Positions 33,907 to 40,499 of a stretch of DNA of 64,000 nucleotides are shown here, one piece after another (within the stretch, counting starts at the first letter, position 1; each line of letters opens with the position of its first letter). Under the pieces are notes generated by a model. The model worked only from the letters and a program-made list of their open reading frames with translations, was not told the DNA's origin and searched no databases. Made by a program: the position numbers and the translations under genes. Source of the stretch: Halocatena salina (GTDB lineage: Archaea; Halobacteriota; Halobacteria; Halobacteriales; Haloarculaceae); assembly GCF_023115355.1 (NCBI RefSeq), contig NZ_CP096019.1, positions 868,001 through 932,000 on the forward strand, in the 5' to 3' direction.

Positions 33907-33982
33907 GCCAAGGGAGCTTGGGTCCGGTCCAAGCACTCGATTTGTAATCGAGAATTCATGGGTTCAAATCCCATCCTTGGCT
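33907..33982 (+). tRNA. tRNA-Thr (anticodon TGT)
   Basis: A 76-nt cloverleaf: acceptor GCCAAGG with CCTTGGC plus discriminator T. The anticodon stem CTCGA/TCGAG holds the loop TTTGTAA, anticodon TGT (reads ACA, ACG). The T-arm is ATGGG-TTCAAAT-CCCAT. No intron is seen and CCA is not encoded. It marks the left edge of an accessory stretch (34-40.5 kb). A repeated tRNA 3' end that would prove integration was not found. Confidence 0.95.
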
Positions 33983-34071
33983 CTGCTGAAAACTGTCTCC
34001 AGATTTGTCGCCTCCAAAAGTCCCACACAGCATAGCTGCCTTCGACGAAATATGCGATGTCTCTGAGTGGA

Positions 34072-34628
34072 CTAGGCACTCAACGCAGTAACGACATCTT
34101 CGACCGTGAATAGCCGAAAATCGTCCCGTTTCGCAGCCGCTTCCGTTACAGACTGTTTGAATCCACTCCGTGAAAACAGTGCGTACTCCGCGACTCGTTC
34201 ACTGCCGTTGTTCGGTGTCCGTCGGAGTTGGTTGACGTGACGCTCAAGTTTCGAGAGTGCGTTGTATCCGACCAGTGACTGCTGGAATTTGCATTCGCCA
34301 GCGATCAGGGTCTCTCCAGTAGTGAGTCCCACGGCATCGATCTCGTGTTCGCCGTACCACCACTGTCCGGTCTGCGTGATCGTCTACTCCGGGTACAACG
34401 ACCGAAGCGCTGAACAGCACAACTCCGCAAACGACGTGCTTACGAAATCAGCTACCTCTGGTTCGATGAGCGTCTCGTACGCATCCTATCCGAATTTGTC
34501 GTACTGCTCCAGTCCCATAGACGAAGTGGAACCAGAAGCGGAAGAACGGATCCCTAATAGGCGTCGTCCGACTCGTAGAGAGCACGCAGCCGTGAGAGTT
34601 CCTCACTCCGGTTTACGAACTCCGCCAT
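34072..34628 (-). pseudogene. Decayed archaeal ATPase with DUF234 domain, core deleted
   Basis: The ATG at 34628 opens the family start MAEFVNRSEELSRLRALYE, with a TATA-like ACTATAC about 27 nt upstream, but a stop follows after 24 codons. It is joined directly to the late part of the same family, DPFFRFWFHFVYG, then, after a shift, EPEVADFVSTSFAELCCSAL, a TAG, GQWWYGEHEIDAVGL, ECKFQQSLVGY and the true end. The Walker-containing ATPase core (roughly 250-300 residues) is missing. So one internal deletion plus a frameshift and a nonsense codon have killed a DEXX-box ATPase/DUF234 gene, a family common near archaeal mobile DNA. Confidence 0.82.
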
Positions 34629-34883
34629 AGCTGATGCTATTCGATCTCAACGTATAGTACTTCAAAGTATCATACTCTCGTTCAGGTGTTCGACCTTGGA
34701 TCAGCTCCGACCGACTGAGCGTCGTGCAGTGGTTGGCTGCCGTCCGGTAATCGACGCGTGCTGTCGTGGGTGCTGGTCGCCACAACGTGCCGACCTCACT
34801 GCGGTCAGGAAAACACAGCCCTCACAGCGCACGATCGTCACCAGCGATGTTCTGTCTGTTTCTTAAAAAACGAGGAGAATGAC
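34629..34883. other. Non-coding interval between pseudogene and small zinc protein
   Basis: It contains the promoter-like region of the decayed ATPase near its left end. No convincing gene is seen on either strand; short frames here have low-complexity Arg/Ser/Thr composition. Confidence 0.4.
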
Positions 34884-35132
34884 TTACGGTCCCAAGATCG
34901 ACCGGAACGTTCGGTATGCCTCTCCGTCGACGTCGAGCAAGCGCTTACGGACGAAGTGCCCTTTGGCACAACGTTTGATCTCGACGCTGCCGCCCTCGCC
35001 CTCCTCTTCGATGATACGGGTGTACACAGCCGCCTCACACCACGGCTTGATGCACGTCTCTCGGGCAGGTGATTCCTCATCGTTCTGGTCACAACCGATA
35101 CTTTTCTCTACGTCCGTGTCGTTATGATCCAT
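34884..35132 (-). CDS. Small Cys-rich haloarchaeal protein, probable zinc binder
   Basis: An 82-aa acidic protein with cysteines at about 14, 27, 32 and 54 (CIKPWCEAAVYTRII, later KRCAKGHFVRKRLLDVDGEAY). The C-x4-C and C-x2-GH arrangement and the strand pattern suggest a zinc-beta-ribbon. The composition is strongly haloarchaeal, unlike the overlapping plus-strand frame, which is rejected. No partner or function is known. Confidence 0.6.
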   Translation of the reverse strand: MDHNDTDVEKSIGCDQNDEESPARETCIKPWCEAAVYTRIIEEEGEGGSVEIKRCAKGHFVRKRLLDVDGEAYRTFRSILGP

Positions 35133-35554
35133 TGGTGTTCACTGCTCGTTAACCGCGAACCTCGAACACCGCCGTTCGGGTGTTTCCACCACCCGGACAC
35201 TTTGTGTGTCACGCGGCGTTCGTGCTTCTCATCGTAATCCGTGAGTAAAAAGCTATCGAACAGGAAAGATAATTGTCAATATTGCTGATCGATCAGTTCA
35301 ACTCTTAGCGGCAGGTCGCGAGCCTGTTGATGGCGTGGATGAACGCCAATTCGATCGCTCCGAGTCGAACGGGAATTACTCACGACTGGCCGTTTTTCTC
35401 GCCCTGAGCTACAGTGATGGACTGTTCTAGGTGAGGCGGGTAGCTGAACTGTAGGTGCTAAGCCCCCTTCCTCAACGAACGAGCGTAGCGAGTGAGTAGG
35501 TCGGGGAAGTTCACTAGCGAAGCATGAATATATCGGAATATAGTAATACAGAAT
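35133..35554. other. Non-coding interval with IS-like debris
   Basis: There are 422 bp without a credible gene. Frames near 35290-35420 are open for about 40 codons on either strand but resemble nothing I recognise. The right part holds the CCCCCTTCCTC hairpin described separately. AT content rises toward the 35555 start. Confidence 0.4.
35452..35525 (+). mobile_element. Possible insertion-sequence end remnant (hairpin)
   Basis: GCTAAGCCCCCTTCCTC leads into AACGAACGAGCGTAGCGAGTGAGTAGGTCGGGGAAGTTCAC. The flanks CCCC-TTCCTC and GGGGAAG can fold over a GAGCG/GAGTG-rich loop. I associate this motif with ends of haloarchaeal TnpB-only elements. No transposase is attached. It is only a pattern resemblance. 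Confidence 0.25.
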
Positions 35555-35929
35555 ATGTCAGAAACACTGCGAGATATCGAATTCAATCGAGATTTTTCCG
35601 AGGAGGAGGTGAAAGAGTGGGTCAATACGTCACCAGAGTGGAAACCAGACGAACGCGTGGAAGCGAGTTCGATCGAATACGACCTTGTGACTTTTGTCGT
35701 CTACCAACAGGACAGTAGCGTTGGCTGGTTCGACCTGAACGTCGACGAAATCCCCCACGACGTGGAGAGCGGGCAGGTCTACAACGCTGAGATCGAGGGC
35801 GACACGGTCGTTTGGATGCAGTTCGATCCTGAGGTGACCGAGCGCTCGAAGGAGCGGTTGGAAGAGAATTACGATGACGTCGTAACCACGGTTGAGGAGG
35901 ACTACGAAAACGTCGACCGCGGCGAGTGA
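35555..35929 (+). CDS. Hypothetical acidic protein
   Basis: A 124-aa protein, very rich in Glu and Asp: a helical start (FNRDFSEEEVKEWVNTSPEW), a beta-rich centre (YDLVTFVVYQQDSSVGWFDLNVD, then YNAEIEGDTVVWMQFDPEV) and a helical C-terminus (ERSKERLEENYDDVVTTVEEDYENV). No known motif. It is the first intact gene of the accessory stretch; a 167-bp gap separates it from the DUF3006 gene. The codon use is consistent with a real gene. Confidence 0.6.
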   Translation: MSETLRDIEFNRDFSEEEVKEWVNTSPEWKPDERVEASSIEYDLVTFVVYQQDSSVGWFDLNVDEIPHDVESGQVYNAEIEGDTVVWMQFDPEVTERSKERLEENYDDVVTTVEEDYENVDRGE

Positions 35930-36096
35930 CTGAAGGGAATCCATGGTCTCAGATTCTACGTATGATGAGCACACGTACTGGATCGGAGCTGAGAACCGAA
36001 TGGAGCAATGCTACCGATACCAATCCATATTACATCTAGTTTAGTCTCCCTTCACCAATGTTTATACAGGTTGTGGTGTTGATATAAGATAGAGCT

Positions 36097-36456
36097 ATGA
36101 CGTCGTTCGACGGTGCTCAATACTGGTGGGAAGAGGACCCAGACAATGGTGAGTATGAACTTCAATTTGATCGGTTTGAATCAAACAAGGCCGTTCTTCT
36201 CGTAGTTGACGAGGCAGAGGAGTGGCCTATCGGAGATATCGTTCTCCCAGCAGCTAGTGTTCCTGAACTTGATCCAGATGATGCAGTCGGGACTGCGGTC
36301 TTCCACGGGACAATTGAAGACGGTGAACTCATAGAGATAGCGTACGATTCGGCACTTACTGAGCAACGCATCACAGAAGCTGAAGAGCAGGACAAGCGTA
36401 TCCGTGCGAATTCTGCCGATAAAAGCGCAGAGTCAGACAAGCCAGAGAATCAATAG
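36097..36456 (+). CDS. DUF3006-like small protein
   Basis: A 119-aa protein. Residues about 20-65 resemble DUF3006 (FDRFESNKAVLLVVDEAEEWPIGDIVLPAASVPELDPDDAVGTAV): a strand, a V-D-E turn, and a P-x-x-x-L-P segment. DUF3006 is usually found with ComEC-like MBL hydrolases, as here: the next gene starts 2 bp later. The acidic Ser/Glu/Asp/Lys tail is probably disordered. Two TATA-like elements (TTTATAC, GATATAAG) precede it. It is likely an accessory or regulatory subunit of the MBL protein. Confidence 0.7.
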   Translation: MTSFDGAQYWWEEDPDNGEYELQFDRFESNKAVLLVVDEAEEWPIGDIVLPAASVPELDPDDAVGTAVFHGTIEDGELIEIAYDSALTEQRITEAEEQDKRIRANSADKSAESDKPENQ

Positions 36457-36458
36457 CG

Positions 36459-38519
36459 ATGGGGGCCCGCAATGACACTGACGGGCTTCGTGTGGATGTG
36501 ATCGATGTCGGTCAAGGAGAGAGTATCTTGCTTGAGGGACCCACAGGAGAGACAATGCTCATCGACTCCGGTGATTATCGAGACCGGGGAGAACAGGTTC
36601 TCGCCCATCTGGATGATCGTGGAATTGACTCTCTTGATCATCTTGTCGCTACCCATTATGATGCCGATCATATTGGTGGCCATGCAATGATTGTTGAGGA
36701 ATTTGGGCAAGACAGGATTGGAACGGCATACTGTCCCTCTCAAAAAGGCGTCAACACAAAGAACTCTAAGACAAAGAGCCGGTATAAAGATGCGCTTAAA
36801 GCAAATAACCTTGAGGAGATAGCGCTTCACGAAGGGGATTCAATCAATGTTGACGGAATCACTGTGGAGGTGTTGAATCCATCTCCAGAGATAAATAGTA
36901 AAAAACAAAACCAAAACAGTCTCGCTCTTCAAGCCACCTACGATGAAAAGAGCGTTCTACTCACGGGAGATGTTGAAGGTGAGGCTGAAACCCGATTAGT
37001 CGAAGAGCATGCTGATCAACTCAGTACTGTTGATAGTCTCAAGGTGACCCACCACGGGGCAGAAAATGGAACAGATTCCGAATCACTTGCCCACACACAG
37101 CCGGACTCACTGATTATCTCCAGTGGACTGGACAATCGGTATACGACAGAGAAAAACGACTACGATGCGCATCCCCACGACGAGACGCTTAAACGAATCT
37201 CCGATCATGAGGATGACATCGATTGCTACTGGACCGCATACCACGGGACGACAAGCCTCCGCATCGAAGACGGTGAGCTACAAATTGAGGCAGCCCACGG
37301 CCAGCAAGCGCTCTCAGAAGTCGACCTAGCCGCCCTAAAATACTACGGGCGAGAGCACGATCTCGACAATGAGCAACTGGCCGAGATTGAGGAGTTCCCG
37401 TTTGCTGATTTACCAGGGGAGACGCCCAAGTGGGCATGTGAGGCTCCCATTGTCGACACGAGTCAGGCATTGTCACAAGTAGCAGACAACGAGACCGAAA
37501 CGGAACAGACAGCGCCCCAGACCGAGCAGATAGCGGAGGCCGACGTTGGTGGGATGAACCAGTCCATCAGTGAGAGAATAGATAACGCCACAGACCAAAA
37601 CGATCTCGAGGGAGCCACCCTCCACGTCACTCCCACCGAGAACACCGATGTCGACGCTTCGTTTAGCGAGGGCGATATCACCCTGTCGATCGCCGATGAC
37701 GCACAGACGACAGACGGTACCAAAGTTGACATATCACCAAGTGATGATGACTTCGAACTATCGACAGGCGACGATGGGACACTCACAGTAGCGCTTGACG
37801 AAGCTACTGGCACTACGATGGAAGTTTCTCCGGGGGCGGAGGATGACGCTGACTTCTCGTTTGGAGATGATCTGACGCTCGCGTTCGATGATAGTGAGGT
37901 TCGGGTCTCGCCTGGAGAGGAGGACATTCAGCTGCGTCCCGGCGACGACGGTGCCGTTCAGATGGCTGTTGGCGACGGGTACCTCACCAACGAGCCGAGC
38001 AACGACCCGGCGACAGACCAAACCACCGGCGCGACGGGTCTCGATGATACCGAAGAAACGGAACGAGACGAAGCAACAGCGTCAAAGGACACCAAGGAAG
38101 CAGCTAACGGATTAGCTACCGAGGCAGTACCTAACGAGAGCACGGACAACGAACCCCAAGAGCCAGAAGAGGGAGTGACAGCGGCCGGAGCAAACGGAGA
38201 CGACTCATCCGGCGAGTCCGACGTGGATGAGCACACCGTGGACAAGCCTAGCAGCCTTCCACGGTGGATGGATCTCGACTACGATGGTCTCGTATCGTCC
38301 GTGGACTCGAACAGTAAATGGGTGGATTCGAAGCCCCCCAAATTTGCCGATCCATGGCTGACAGCGCCGGAACGAGAATCTGACGAACGTACGAACGGGC
38401 GTGACCGTGCCACTGAGACCACGCCCCAATCCAATGATGAAAGAAATGCAGACCGCGACGATGCTGACCCCACCCTAACTGACAGTGGACCCAGCAGCGG
38501 TGATCCCAGTATCGGATAG
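36459..38519 (+). CDS. ComEC/Rec2-like MBL-fold hydrolase with long acidic repeat tail
   Basis: A 686-aa protein. Residues about 10-275 are a metallo-beta-lactamase fold of the ComEC C-terminal type: VIDVGQGESILLEG, ligand set ATHYDADHIGG (His66, Asp68, Asp70, His71), LLTGD (Asp171), KVTHHG (His198-199) and NRYTTEK..HPHDETLKRI. All metal ligands are kept. No membrane channel or signal is present, so it is cytosolic, unlike full ComEC. From about 380 to 500 there are four degenerate repeats (SPx..D..FSxGDD.TLxxxDD). The remaining acidic Ser/Thr/Glu/Asp tail is disordered. It is in an operon with the DUF3006 gene. Predicted role: single-strand nuclease. Confidence 0.85.
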   Translation: MGARNDTDGLRVDVIDVGQGESILLEGPTGETMLIDSGDYRDRGEQVLAHLDDRGIDSLDHLVATHYDADHIGGHAMIVEEFGQDRIGTAYCPSQKGVNTKNSKTKSRYKDALKANNLEEIALHEGDSINVDGITVEVLNPSPEINSKKQNQNSLALQATYDEKSVLLTGDVEGEAETRLVEEHADQLSTVDSLKVTHHGAENGTDSESLAHTQPDSLIISSGLDNRYTTEKNDYDAHPHDETLKRISDHEDDIDCYWTAYHGTTSLRIEDGELQIEAAHGQQALSEVDLAALKYYGREHDLDNEQLAEIEEFPFADLPGETPKWACEAPIVDTSQALSQVADNETETEQTAPQTEQIAEADVGGMNQSISERIDNATDQNDLEGATLHVTPTENTDVDASFSEGDITLSIADDAQTTDGTKVDISPSDDDFELSTGDDGTLTVALDEATGTTMEVSPGAEDDADFSFGDDLTLAFDDSEVRVSPGEEDIQLRPGDDGAVQMAVGDGYLTNEPSNDPATDQTTGATGLDDTEETERDEATASKDTKEAANGLATEAVPNESTDNEPQEPEEGVTAAGANGDDSSGESDVDEHTVDKPSSLPRWMDLDYDGLVSSVDSNSKWVDSKPPKFADPWLTAPERESDERTNGRDRATETTPQSNDERNADRDDADPTLTDSGPSSGDPSIG

Positions 38520-38561
38520 GTCTCCGTCACTTTGGTGGATGGCTGGAGAGCATCATGCGTC

Positions 38562-40259
38562 TCAGTCGTGATCAGTTGGTACAGGCGATCGCTGTTCCTC
38601 TGTGGACTCACCCGGTTCGAGTGCTTTTCTCGAAGACTTCTCAGGCAGCGCCGTAGCATCACTACCACTGGCTGGATCAGCTGGCTTGAGCACACTCTCG
38701 ACGAATTCTCGCGTCGTATCATTCAACATCGAGATATACCCATGCAACCACCCGGCTTGTTTCACGACCACACCCACGCCGGGATCCCAACGGCGGATTT
38801 CGCCCGTTGAGAAGGGATGTTCCTCGACCTCCTTGACCTCGCGGCGCTTGCGGTCCCAGCTGTCTTTTCCGACGTGCTGGGTGTACTCCGAGAAGTCCTC
38901 TCCGATCGCTGAACGATAAAATTCGACGGTTTGAGGATCGTTCGGCCGTAGTAGGATCATCGATACTAGCCCCGCCAGAATCGCCTCCCCTCCGGACTCT
39001 CCGTAGTTCTCGTACAGTTGTTGAACGGACTGAAGAGTCACGAGCGTCACAACTTGCTCCCCACGCCCGACGTTGACGAGTTCCTCCAGCCGTCGGAGAT
39101 GCGGAATCTGGGCAAACTCATCCAACACGAAATACGAATACTCATCCGTGTCTTGCATCGCAAACATTGCGGCGTGATCGATCAGAAATCGAAAGATCGG
39201 TTTCGTTGCCTGTCCAGACTCTTTCGGGAAATCGAGTACGATCGGAACTCCTTGTGGATCGTTAGTATGCTCACGAAGCGAAAAACCCCTCCCGTCGTCT
39301 GGTTCGTCTCCGAAATCCCCAACAAACACCTTGTTGACGACACGCTGGACCGACGCATACACGCCCTGGGCCTGTTTGGGACTCGCCTCCACGTCAATGG
39401 CCGATGCGGCCGCCTGGAACTCCGAGTACTCGTTTAAATCCTCATACACCTCTTGAACCCCCCGTGTCTGGAAATAGTAGCGCACTGCCGCATTCGAGAG
39501 GTTCTCCTTGTCGCTCCGGTGTAACATCATCTTCAGGCAGGCGGCGAACACTTGCCGGGCCATATCGTCGAAGAAGTCGTTGTCGCCACCGCTCAGTTGG
39601 GGGAAGAGTGCACGAGCGAATTCATCAACATCGTGATTCGAATCGAACTCTCGAAAAAGGTTCCAGATATGTGTCGAACCTTCCATCGATATTTTAATAT
39701 AATCGACATTGATGGAGTCAAAGAATTCTTGGAAATCAGACTTGTGATCGTACACCAACACCAACGAATCCTGGTCAAACAATAGCTGTTGGACGAGATG
39801 TTTCGCAGCTTCGGTTTTTCCCGAGCCAGGTGCCCCAGCGACGAGAATCGAGCGCTTGGGCAGATCAACGCTTCCAGCCCACTGATCGAGCAAGCCGATT
39901 CCTTCACTCGTATTTTCGATATCCATATTAATAACCAGCCCATCGCCCAATCCCTTCCAATACCGATACGCGTGATATCGACCACGACAGAACCACATGA
40001 GCGACAGCCCAGCCAGCACACCCCAAAGCACTGTTACCGGAATCAACTGGATGGAACGCACCCATATCCCAAACAAGCCCAGTCCGAGGAGCACCAGAAA
40101 CGGCACGATCGTCCAATGAACTGCGCGCAGCGGATCGAAGATCGAGGATACTCCGCGCCAAAACGGACTCCACATCGGCCGCTCAACGAAGAGTGGACCA
40201 ACTGCTAACACGACAAGTCCAGCTAGTATCCACAGGCTGACAGCACTCGCAATCTCCAT
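38562..40259 (-). CDS. VirD4/TraD-like membrane ATPase (type IV coupling protein family)
   Basis: A 565-aa protein. Three N-terminal helices (about 5-25, 50-66, 72-92) are followed by an ATPase: Walker A GAPGSGKT (142-149), LVYDHKSDFQEF, Walker B SYFVLDEFAQIPHL (375-388), then the arginine/Gln region VTLVTLQSVQQL and LLRPNDPQTVEFY. The order matches TraD/VirD4 hexameric pumps that move DNA or protein through membranes. The Pro/Ser/Glu tail is disordered. No relaxase, VirB4 or pilus genes are near. It converges with the MBL gene (42 bp). Confidence 0.85.
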   Translation of the reverse strand: MEIASAVSLWILAGLVVLAVGPLFVERPMWSPFWRGVSSIFDPLRAVHWTIVPFLVLLGLGLFGIWVRSIQLIPVTVLWGVLAGLSLMWFCRGRYHAYRYWKGLGDGLVINMDIENTSEGIGLLDQWAGSVDLPKRSILVAGAPGSGKTEAAKHLVQQLLFDQDSLVLVYDHKSDFQEFFDSINVDYIKISMEGSTHIWNLFREFDSNHDVDEFARALFPQLSGGDNDFFDDMARQVFAACLKMMLHRSDKENLSNAAVRYYFQTRGVQEVYEDLNEYSEFQAAASAIDVEASPKQAQGVYASVQRVVNKVFVGDFGDEPDDGRGFSLREHTNDPQGVPIVLDFPKESGQATKPIFRFLIDHAAMFAMQDTDEYSYFVLDEFAQIPHLRRLEELVNVGRGEQVVTLVTLQSVQQLYENYGESGGEAILAGLVSMILLRPNDPQTVEFYRSAIGEDFSEYTQHVGKDSWDRKRREVKEVEEHPFSTGEIRRWDPGVGVVVKQAGWLHGYISMLNDTTREFVESVLKPADPASGSDATALPEKSSRKALEPGESTEEQRSPVPTDHD

Positions 40260-40499
40260 CAGAGTCCCCCCATATATTGTTTTTTGCTGACATTGATATC
40301 AAAGCTAGATAAAAACAGTTTGGGAACAATGCTTGCCGTCGATCGTGGGCGGTTATGTTTGAGTAATCGTGGCGAATGTATTTTAAATCGAAGTGCTTGG
40401 TCACTCATGTAGTCCCAACTTCACTCAATTCAAACATATATCCTATGATTCTGTTGTTTGTGTCTTCGACCGAACGTTATTCGTTGGACGATAGATAGT
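40260..40499. other. Non-coding interval, right edge of accessory block
   Basis: An AT-rich 240-bp stretch (for example 40370-40390 and 40430-40450). No gene was found. It separates the coupling-ATPase start from the Pus10 stop and is a candidate for the right boundary of the accessory stretch; a copy of the tRNA-Thr 3' end was not seen here. Confidence 0.4.

What the first reader, a model, noticed from the sequence alone, without database searches (positions are those of the whole stretch)
36097..40259. Accessory block pairing a cytosolic ComEC-like nuclease with a VirD4-like membrane ATPase
DUF3006, a ComEC-type MBL hydrolase without any channel domain, and a three-helix VirD4/TraD-like ATPase lie together, the last convergent (42 bp). 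All MBL metal ligands and both Walker motifs are intact, but no relaxase, VirB4, pilin or ComEA is present. The block lies 2 kb after tRNA-Thr in a stretch with a dead ATPase and IS-like debris. One reading is that the ATPase pumps single-stranded DNA while the MBL enzyme cuts it, as a DNA-uptake or anti-invader module. That function is inference; the gene set and its intactness are seen.
Basis: partly seen in the sequence, partly recalled or inferred. Interest (0 to 1): 0.7.

Follow-up and report, generated by a model that had tools for sequence, protein, structure and literature searches.

The report
Nuclease cassette beside orphan conjugation ATPase
In a salt-loving archaeon, a DNA-cutting enzyme that relatives normally export is instead made without an export signal and sits beside a conjugation-type motor protein that has lost its usual DNA-transfer partner; the pairing arose at least twice and may be an archaeal toxin-delivery or defence module, though its function is untested.

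Summary
The genes are as described: a weak DUF3006-like protein, a ComEC-type MBL hydrolase without a channel, and a convergent VirD4/TrwB-type ATPase (T4CP), all intact. A second DUF3006-like gene at 35555-35929 was missed. The block is a 6.5-kb insertion 3' of tRNA-Thr, absent from a congener. The pairing is not chance: DUF3006+MBL lies directly beside a relaxase-less T4CP at five distinct sites (this window; two in a congener; a Halocatena marina plasmid, in two strains; one in another family). The window's T4CP falls among relaxase-linked T4CPs, apart from the other Halocatena ones, so the pairing arose at least twice. On the plasmid the run is HEAT, coiled-coil protein, DUF3006, DUF3006, MBL, T4CP; the coiled-coil and MBL proteins share a C-terminal tail. 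The window's MBL shares another tail with a HEAT-linked protein. Elsewhere, nearly all DUF3006-partnered MBLs carry an N-terminal export signal; the 14 cytosolic ones lack it. Best reading, inferred: DUF3006 is a cytosolic inhibitor, and the T4CP takes over export of the nuclease, recognising the tail. No activity or export is shown. DNA uptake has no support; intracellular defence stays open.

The parts
34884..35132 (-). 82-aa four-cysteine (zinc-ribbon-like) ORF, divergent from the cassette; the ORF plus about 165 bp upstream (34884-35299) is a repeated DNA module
   Evidence: 85% DNA identity to copies placed the same way upstream of two other DUF3006+MBL cassettes (L018, L019) and of a HEAT+ZR cassette (L020) in the same genome; gaps inside the ORF are multiples of 3
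   Evidence: PF11213 E 1e-4, below the curated cut-off; own profile 125 bits but it was in the seed
36097..36456 (+). second DUF3006-like protein (119 aa), 2 bp before the MBL gene; proposed cytosolic inhibitor
   Evidence: PF11213 E 0.026; 39-53% identical to proteins upstream of MBL genes in L067, L117, L159
36459..38519 (+). signal-less ComEC-type MBL hydrolase (residues 10-275), helical segment 280-340, repeat tail about 384-545, C-terminus of low complexity
   Evidence: tail shared with the L020 HEAT-linked protein, z 32
38562..40259 (-). relaxase-less VirD4/TrwB-type coupling ATPase, three N-terminal hydrophobic segments, convergent with the MBL gene
34033..40498 (.). whole insertion between tRNA-Thr(TGT) and the Pus10 gene
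   Evidence: congener G338 has the flanks joined with about 43 bp between them (L127); no att repeat over 10 bp

Best explanation
The block is a horizontally acquired nuclease cassette coupled to a VirD4-type motor. The MBL enzyme is a ComEC-type nuclease of a family whose other DUF3006-partnered members are exported by N-terminal signals; here the signal is absent and a C-terminal tail is present. The DUF3006 proteins are cytosolic inhibitors (immunity proteins) that hold the nuclease harmless. The relaxase-less coupling ATPase recognises the tail and hands the nuclease, alone or with DNA, to a type IV secretion-like channel, possibly the chromosomal VirB4 cluster found in all four Halocatena genomes examined, so that it acts outside or in a neighbouring cell. 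HEAT plus coiled-coil/zinc-ribbon (ZR) proteins are a second cargo or accessory type with the same tail. Shown: the genes, the recurrent pairing, tail sharing, the export-signal contrast, presence of the VirB4 cluster. Inferred: nuclease activity, inhibition by DUF3006, tail recognition, export, any use of the VirB4 cluster.
For: DUF3006+MBL directly beside a relaxase-less T4CP at five distinct sites; 0 of 17 relaxase-linked T4CP loci have it (Fisher p 0.022). Uniform-placement chance about 0.025 in G000 and 3e-4 for two pairs in G338. The tree puts P0002 and its H. marina ortholog among relaxase-linked T4CPs, apart from the Halocatena clade used by the other pairs. Shared tails between MBL and HEAT-linked proteins: z 32 (P0001/L020), z 11.8, 9.0 and 6.1 (L159 set). 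Elsewhere 29 of 33 DUF3006-adjacent MBLs scored a hydrophobic segment before the MBL domain; of the four exceptions one is the Halocatena cytosolic type, one is truncated at the contig end, and two have signal-like N-termini outside the scored stretch; all 14 cytosolic cassette MBLs lack one. DUF3006 proteins mostly lack a signal, as expected of an inhibitor. VirB4-like cluster in 4 of 4 Halocatena genomes. Parallel in Xanthomonas: shared C-terminal domain bound by VirD4, inhibitor genes upstream, dispersed effectors (PMC6536674).
Against: No direct evidence of export, toxicity or inhibition. Tails are not one conserved domain: at least two unrelated types, and L018's MBL and L052's HEAT-linked protein lack them. 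The VirB4 cluster is also in G183, which has no such MBL or close T4CP, and carries no T4CP itself. Most cytosolic MBL cassettes in the window's genome are not beside a T4CP. T4CPs can also move DNA alone. In the exported family DUF3006 usually follows the MBL gene; here it precedes it.
Confidence: 0.38

Rival explanations
1. Intracellular defence: the membrane T4CP engages incoming conjugative or viral DNA and the MBL nuclease cuts it, with DUF3006 restraining the nuclease until triggered; the HEAT/ZR proteins are sensors.
For: ComEC-like MBL nucleases are recurrent effectors in Hachiman, AVAST, Lamassu and DRT (PMC12799240); PADLOC profiles for LmuA, RTasMBL, Avs1a and mad8 match parts; multicopy, strain-specific, island-borne.
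Against: No complete known system; only partial-profile hits. No protease partner, and the aligned MBL part (9-228) is as long as its match in ComEC (3-224), so no gating insertion is seen. No recognised sensor NTPase. Does not explain the export-signal contrast or tails shared with non-nuclease proteins.
Confidence: 0.3
2. DNA processing during transfer: the T4CP moves DNA of a co-resident element using a relaxase in trans, and the MBL trims or degrades one strand.
For: Relatives of the T4CP sit behind NikA-like and MobA/VirD2-type relaxase genes; a VirB4 cluster is in the genome; ComEC's own MBL domain works in DNA uptake (family knowledge).
Against: No relaxase of the haloarchaeal type sought was found in five genomes (one query, no positive control among them). 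No MBL beside any of 17 relaxase-linked T4CPs. No ComEC channel seen with it.
Confidence: 0.14
3. Accidental neighbours: a wandering DUF3006+MBL cassette and a decayed conjugation gene that accumulate in the same islands.
For: Window locus is a 6.5-kb tRNA-side insertion with ATPase debris; the genome has about eight MBL matches; a P0002 remnant lies elsewhere in G338; uniform-placement tests ignore clustering of accessory genes.
Against: Five sites, two or more T4CP lineages, two orientations, gaps of 42 to about 320 bp, all genes intact; plasmid operon with shared tails.
Confidence: 0.12

Closest known systems
VirD4/TrwB/TraD type IV coupling proteins
   Same: RecA-like core, both Walker motifs, TraG/TraD C-terminal region, N-terminal membrane helices; TrwB is the solved relative
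   Different: No relaxase, NikA-like protein or T4SS genes beside it
ComEC/Rec2 MBL nuclease domain and DUF3006-linked exported ComEC-like MBLs
   Same: Same MBL subfamily and ligands; closest solved structure is the ComEC MBL domain 9ic4; DUF3006 neighbour
   Different: No channel domain, no export signal, long C-terminal tail, DUF3006 before rather than after
Xanthomonas bacteria-killing T4SS (X-Tfe/X-Tfi)
   Same: Dispersed effector plus upstream small partner, C-terminal region shared by unrelated effectors, VirD4-type ATPase, chromosomal T4SS-like genes (PMC6536674)
   Different: Archaeal; no full VirB set; tails not one domain; no delivery or immunity tested
MBL nuclease-protease pairs of Hachiman/AVAST/Lamassu/DRT
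   Same: ComEC-like MBL nuclease recruited repeatedly to different partner genes (PMC12799240)
   Different: No protease, no gating insertions seen, different partners
Archaeal Ced/Ted DNA import
   Same: Archaeal T4SS-derived membrane system with a HerA/VirB4-type ATPase (PMC9905601, PMC11868833)
   Different: P0002 is VirD4/TrwB-type and only marginally like CedB/CedD; no CedA or CedA1 recognised here

Membership tests
Type IV coupling protein (VirD4/TrwB) | TrwB/TraD ATPase core with Walker A and B | tested here: met
   TrwB_AAD_bind, TraG-D_C, T4SS-DNA_transf above cut-offs; motifs conserved in A4
Type IV coupling protein (VirD4/TrwB) | N-terminal transmembrane segments | tested here: met
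   three hydrophobic segments, 7-25, 49-67, 72-90
Conjugative or mobilisable element | relaxase with accessory RHH protein beside the T4CP | tested here: not met
   none in the window; none found in five genomes with one haloarchaeal relaxase query
ComEC/Rec2 competence protein | MBL nuclease domain with metal ligands | tested here: met
ComEC/Rec2 competence protein | membrane channel domain | tested here: not met
   MBL starts at residue 10; ComEC_Rec2 model matched only at 441-641 of 663; no hydrophobic N-terminus
X-T4SS effector/immunity system | shared C-terminal domain on several effectors | tested here: inconclusive
   two unrelated tail types each shared by an MBL and a HEAT-linked protein; not universal
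X-T4SS effector/immunity system | complete VirB set with VirD4 at a chromosomal locus | tested here: not met
   only a VirB4-like gene with membrane proteins of no clear family at a separate locus
X-T4SS effector/immunity system | partner neutralises effector | not testable with these tools
   needs biochemistry
MBL nuclease-protease defence module | partner trypsin- or caspase-like protease and gating insertions | tested here: not met
   no protease among the block's genes by Pfam; no extra length against ComEC over the aligned part
Ced/Ted DNA import | CedA-type channel and CedB/CedD ATPase | tested here: not met
   P0002 scores 11.5-11.8 bits on CedB/CedD against cut-offs of 600-700; CedA not searched separately

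The most novel reading that the evidence does not exclude
Halophilic archaea have a VirD4-directed antagonism system in which signal-less ComEC-type nucleases and HEAT-linked coiled-coil proteins carry exchangeable C-terminal tails, are restrained by DUF3006-type inhibitors, and are delivered to other cells through a domesticated archaeal T4SS.
Probability: 0.2. Interest if true: 0.88.

Novelty: new variant of a known kind. Interest (0 to 1): 0.58.

Why it matters
[quoted passage not shown] It would also give DUF3006, for which no paper was found, a testable role as inhibitor of exported ComEC-type nucleases in both bacteria and archaea. Even without the delivery step, the repeated pairing of a coupling ATPase with the same nuclease cassette is a gene association for which no description was found.

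Tried and rejected
Simple conjugative-plasmid fragment: rejected as the full account, since five relaxase-less T4CP sites carry the MBL cassette and no relaxase-linked one does. ComEC relic: rejected, no channel domain. Protease-gated defence nuclease: no protease, no extra length over the aligned MBL part. att repeats at the island ends: longest shared word 10 bp. P0002 in viral contigs: none. IS debris was not searched for specifically. MBL counts per genome in the class-wide search are incomplete (top 3 candidates scored). A short C-terminal motif (SLGL, GFSL and the like) seen at the ends of many cytosolic MBLs was not tested against chance.

Full report
What is there. The window lies on the main contig of a Halocatena-like genome (same genus as H. 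marina). Between tRNA-Thr(TGT), 33907-33983, and the Pus10 gene lies a block of lower G+C with: remnants of an archaeal AAA ATPase (34093-34628, two stops and a large deletion); an 82-aa four-cysteine ORF on the minus strand (34884-35132); two DUF3006-like genes (35555-35929 and 36097-36456); the MBL gene (36459-38519); and, convergent with a 42-bp gap, the VirD4-type ATPase gene (38562-40259). In the congener G338 the same flanks are joined with about 43 bp between them, so 34033-40498 is an insertion or, less simply, was lost there. No attachment repeat longer than 10 bp was found.

The MBL protein. Its first 275 residues are a ComEC-type MBL domain: Lactamase_B E 5e-13, ComEC_Rec2 100 bits over the MBL part of that model, and solved ComEC structures as best sequence and fold matches (9ic4, 30bt, 9vc6). 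Ligand positions are invariant in 12 relatives. It starts at residue 10 with no hydrophobic N-terminus. Residues about 384-545 match a HEAT-linked protein elsewhere in the same genome (L020).

The ATPase. P0002 is a T4CP by three Pfam models, with TrwB the only solved relative found by sequence. A class-wide search found relatives at E below 1e-30 in 37 of 391 genomes. In most of the neighbourhoods fetched the T4CP follows a NikA-like RHH gene and a small MobA/VirD2-type relaxase gene, sometimes with a VirB4-like gene. Those are ordinary mobilisation modules at roughly 40-47% identity or less. The window T4CP and its 60% identical H. marina ortholog have none.

Co-occurrence. DUF3006+MBL stands directly beside a relaxase-less T4CP in the window, in G338:C26 (L067) and G338:C48 (L117), in G330:C10 of another family (L069, also convergent), and on H. 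marina plasmids of strains QDMS1 and RDMS1 (L159, L160). That is five distinct sites, the plasmid one in two strains. None of 17 relaxase-linked loci has it (Fisher p 0.022; loci were not sampled at random). Under uniform placement, adjacency within 500 bp has chance about 0.025 in G000 and 3e-4 for two pairs in G338; clustering of accessory genes is not modelled. In the tree, P0002 and its ortholog lie inside a supported group of relaxase-linked T4CPs, while the other Halocatena orphans form a separate clade and L069 is a long branch of unsure place. The pairing therefore arose at least twice.

A larger module. On the H. marina plasmid the codirectional run is HEAT (245 aa), a 550-aa protein with a Gly/Ser-rich segment and coiled coil (called ZR here for the cysteine pairs seen in several relatives, by eye), DUF3006, DUF3006, MBL, T4CP. 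The 550-aa protein and the MBL share their C-terminal region (z 11.8), also with the MBLs of L117 (9.0) and L067 (6.1); in the window's genome P0001 and the HEAT-linked L020 protein share an unrelated tail (z 32; residue-shuffle controls). HEAT/ZR-type genes also lie beside T4CPs in L052 and L013, and ZR-like genes in L068. A 415-bp module holding the 82-aa ORF precedes the window's cassette, two other MBL cassettes and the L020 HEAT cassette. Exchange at both ends of such genes is a pattern familiar from recombining effector families; that comparison is inference.

Export. In the haloarchaeal and viral-collection (bacterial) loci, DUF3006 genes were found next to ComEC-like MBL genes in most cases (56 hits below E 0.01, seeded iteratively). 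Of 33 pairs scored, 29 MBLs have a hydrophobic segment before the MBL domain. The four others are the Halocatena cytosolic type (L072), a contig-truncated ORF (L168), and two with signal-like N-termini beyond the scored stretch (L166, L173), the last judged by eye. All 14 cytosolic cassette MBLs checked lack one. The DUF3006 proteins seen mostly lack export signals, which suits a cytosolic inhibitor of an exported nuclease; no assay exists here and no paper on DUF3006 was found in the held library.

A possible channel. A VirB4-like gene with neighbouring membrane-protein genes is on the main chromosome of all four Halocatena genomes examined. It carries no T4CP or relaxase, and it is present in G183, which lacks the MBL cassettes and has only a distant T4CP. 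It could serve orphan T4CPs but nothing shows that it does.

Judgement. The functional pairing is likely. The mechanism is open: T4CP-directed export of an inhibited nuclease fits the export-signal contrast and tail sharing best (0.38); intracellular defence is the main rival (0.30).

Noticed in passing
window 34884-35299; L018 8258-8668; L019 11144-11552; L020 7373-7785: A 415-bp module (82-aa four-cysteine ORF plus upstream DNA, about 85% identical) stands upstream of MBL and HEAT cassettes in the same genome; copies elsewhere in the genome were not counted.
   Followed up: partly
L149 5382-13263 (G000:C1, about 67.4-75.3 kb): VirB4-like gene cluster with membrane proteins, conserved on the chromosome of all four Halocatena genomes examined, without T4CP or relaxase.
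   Followed up: partly
L163-L214 (viral contigs) and L072-L100: DUF3006 is encoded next to exported ComEC-like MBL genes in many bacterial and haloarchaeal loci, usually just after the MBL gene.
   Followed up: partly
L069 8236-12462 (G330:C10): A third kind of T4CP with an N-terminal DUF4013 region is convergent (47 bp) with an MBL and a DUF3006-like gene in another family.
   Followed up: partly
L064 8754-10823 (G073:C33): A single 689-aa protein fuses a relaxase-like domain to a T4CP.
   Followed up: no
G195, G216, G134, G060 (genus g42) T4CP matches: Several T4CP matches in one genus have an in-frame TAG or TGA within the matched stretch; read-through or decay was not examined.
   Followed up: no
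L118 9424-9652 (G338:C23): A 76-aa N-terminal remnant of a close P0002 ortholog (78% identical) at a different site in the congener.
   Followed up: partly
window 34093-34628 and L159 13822-15204: The dead ATPase in the window has an intact relative downstream of the T4CP on the H. marina plasmid.
   Followed up: partly
C-termini of MBLs in L016, L017, L019, L021, L117, L119-L122: Many cytosolic MBLs end in a short hydrophobic motif (SLGL, SIGL, GFSL, SSL, LSL) after an acidic linker; not tested against chance.
   Followed up: no
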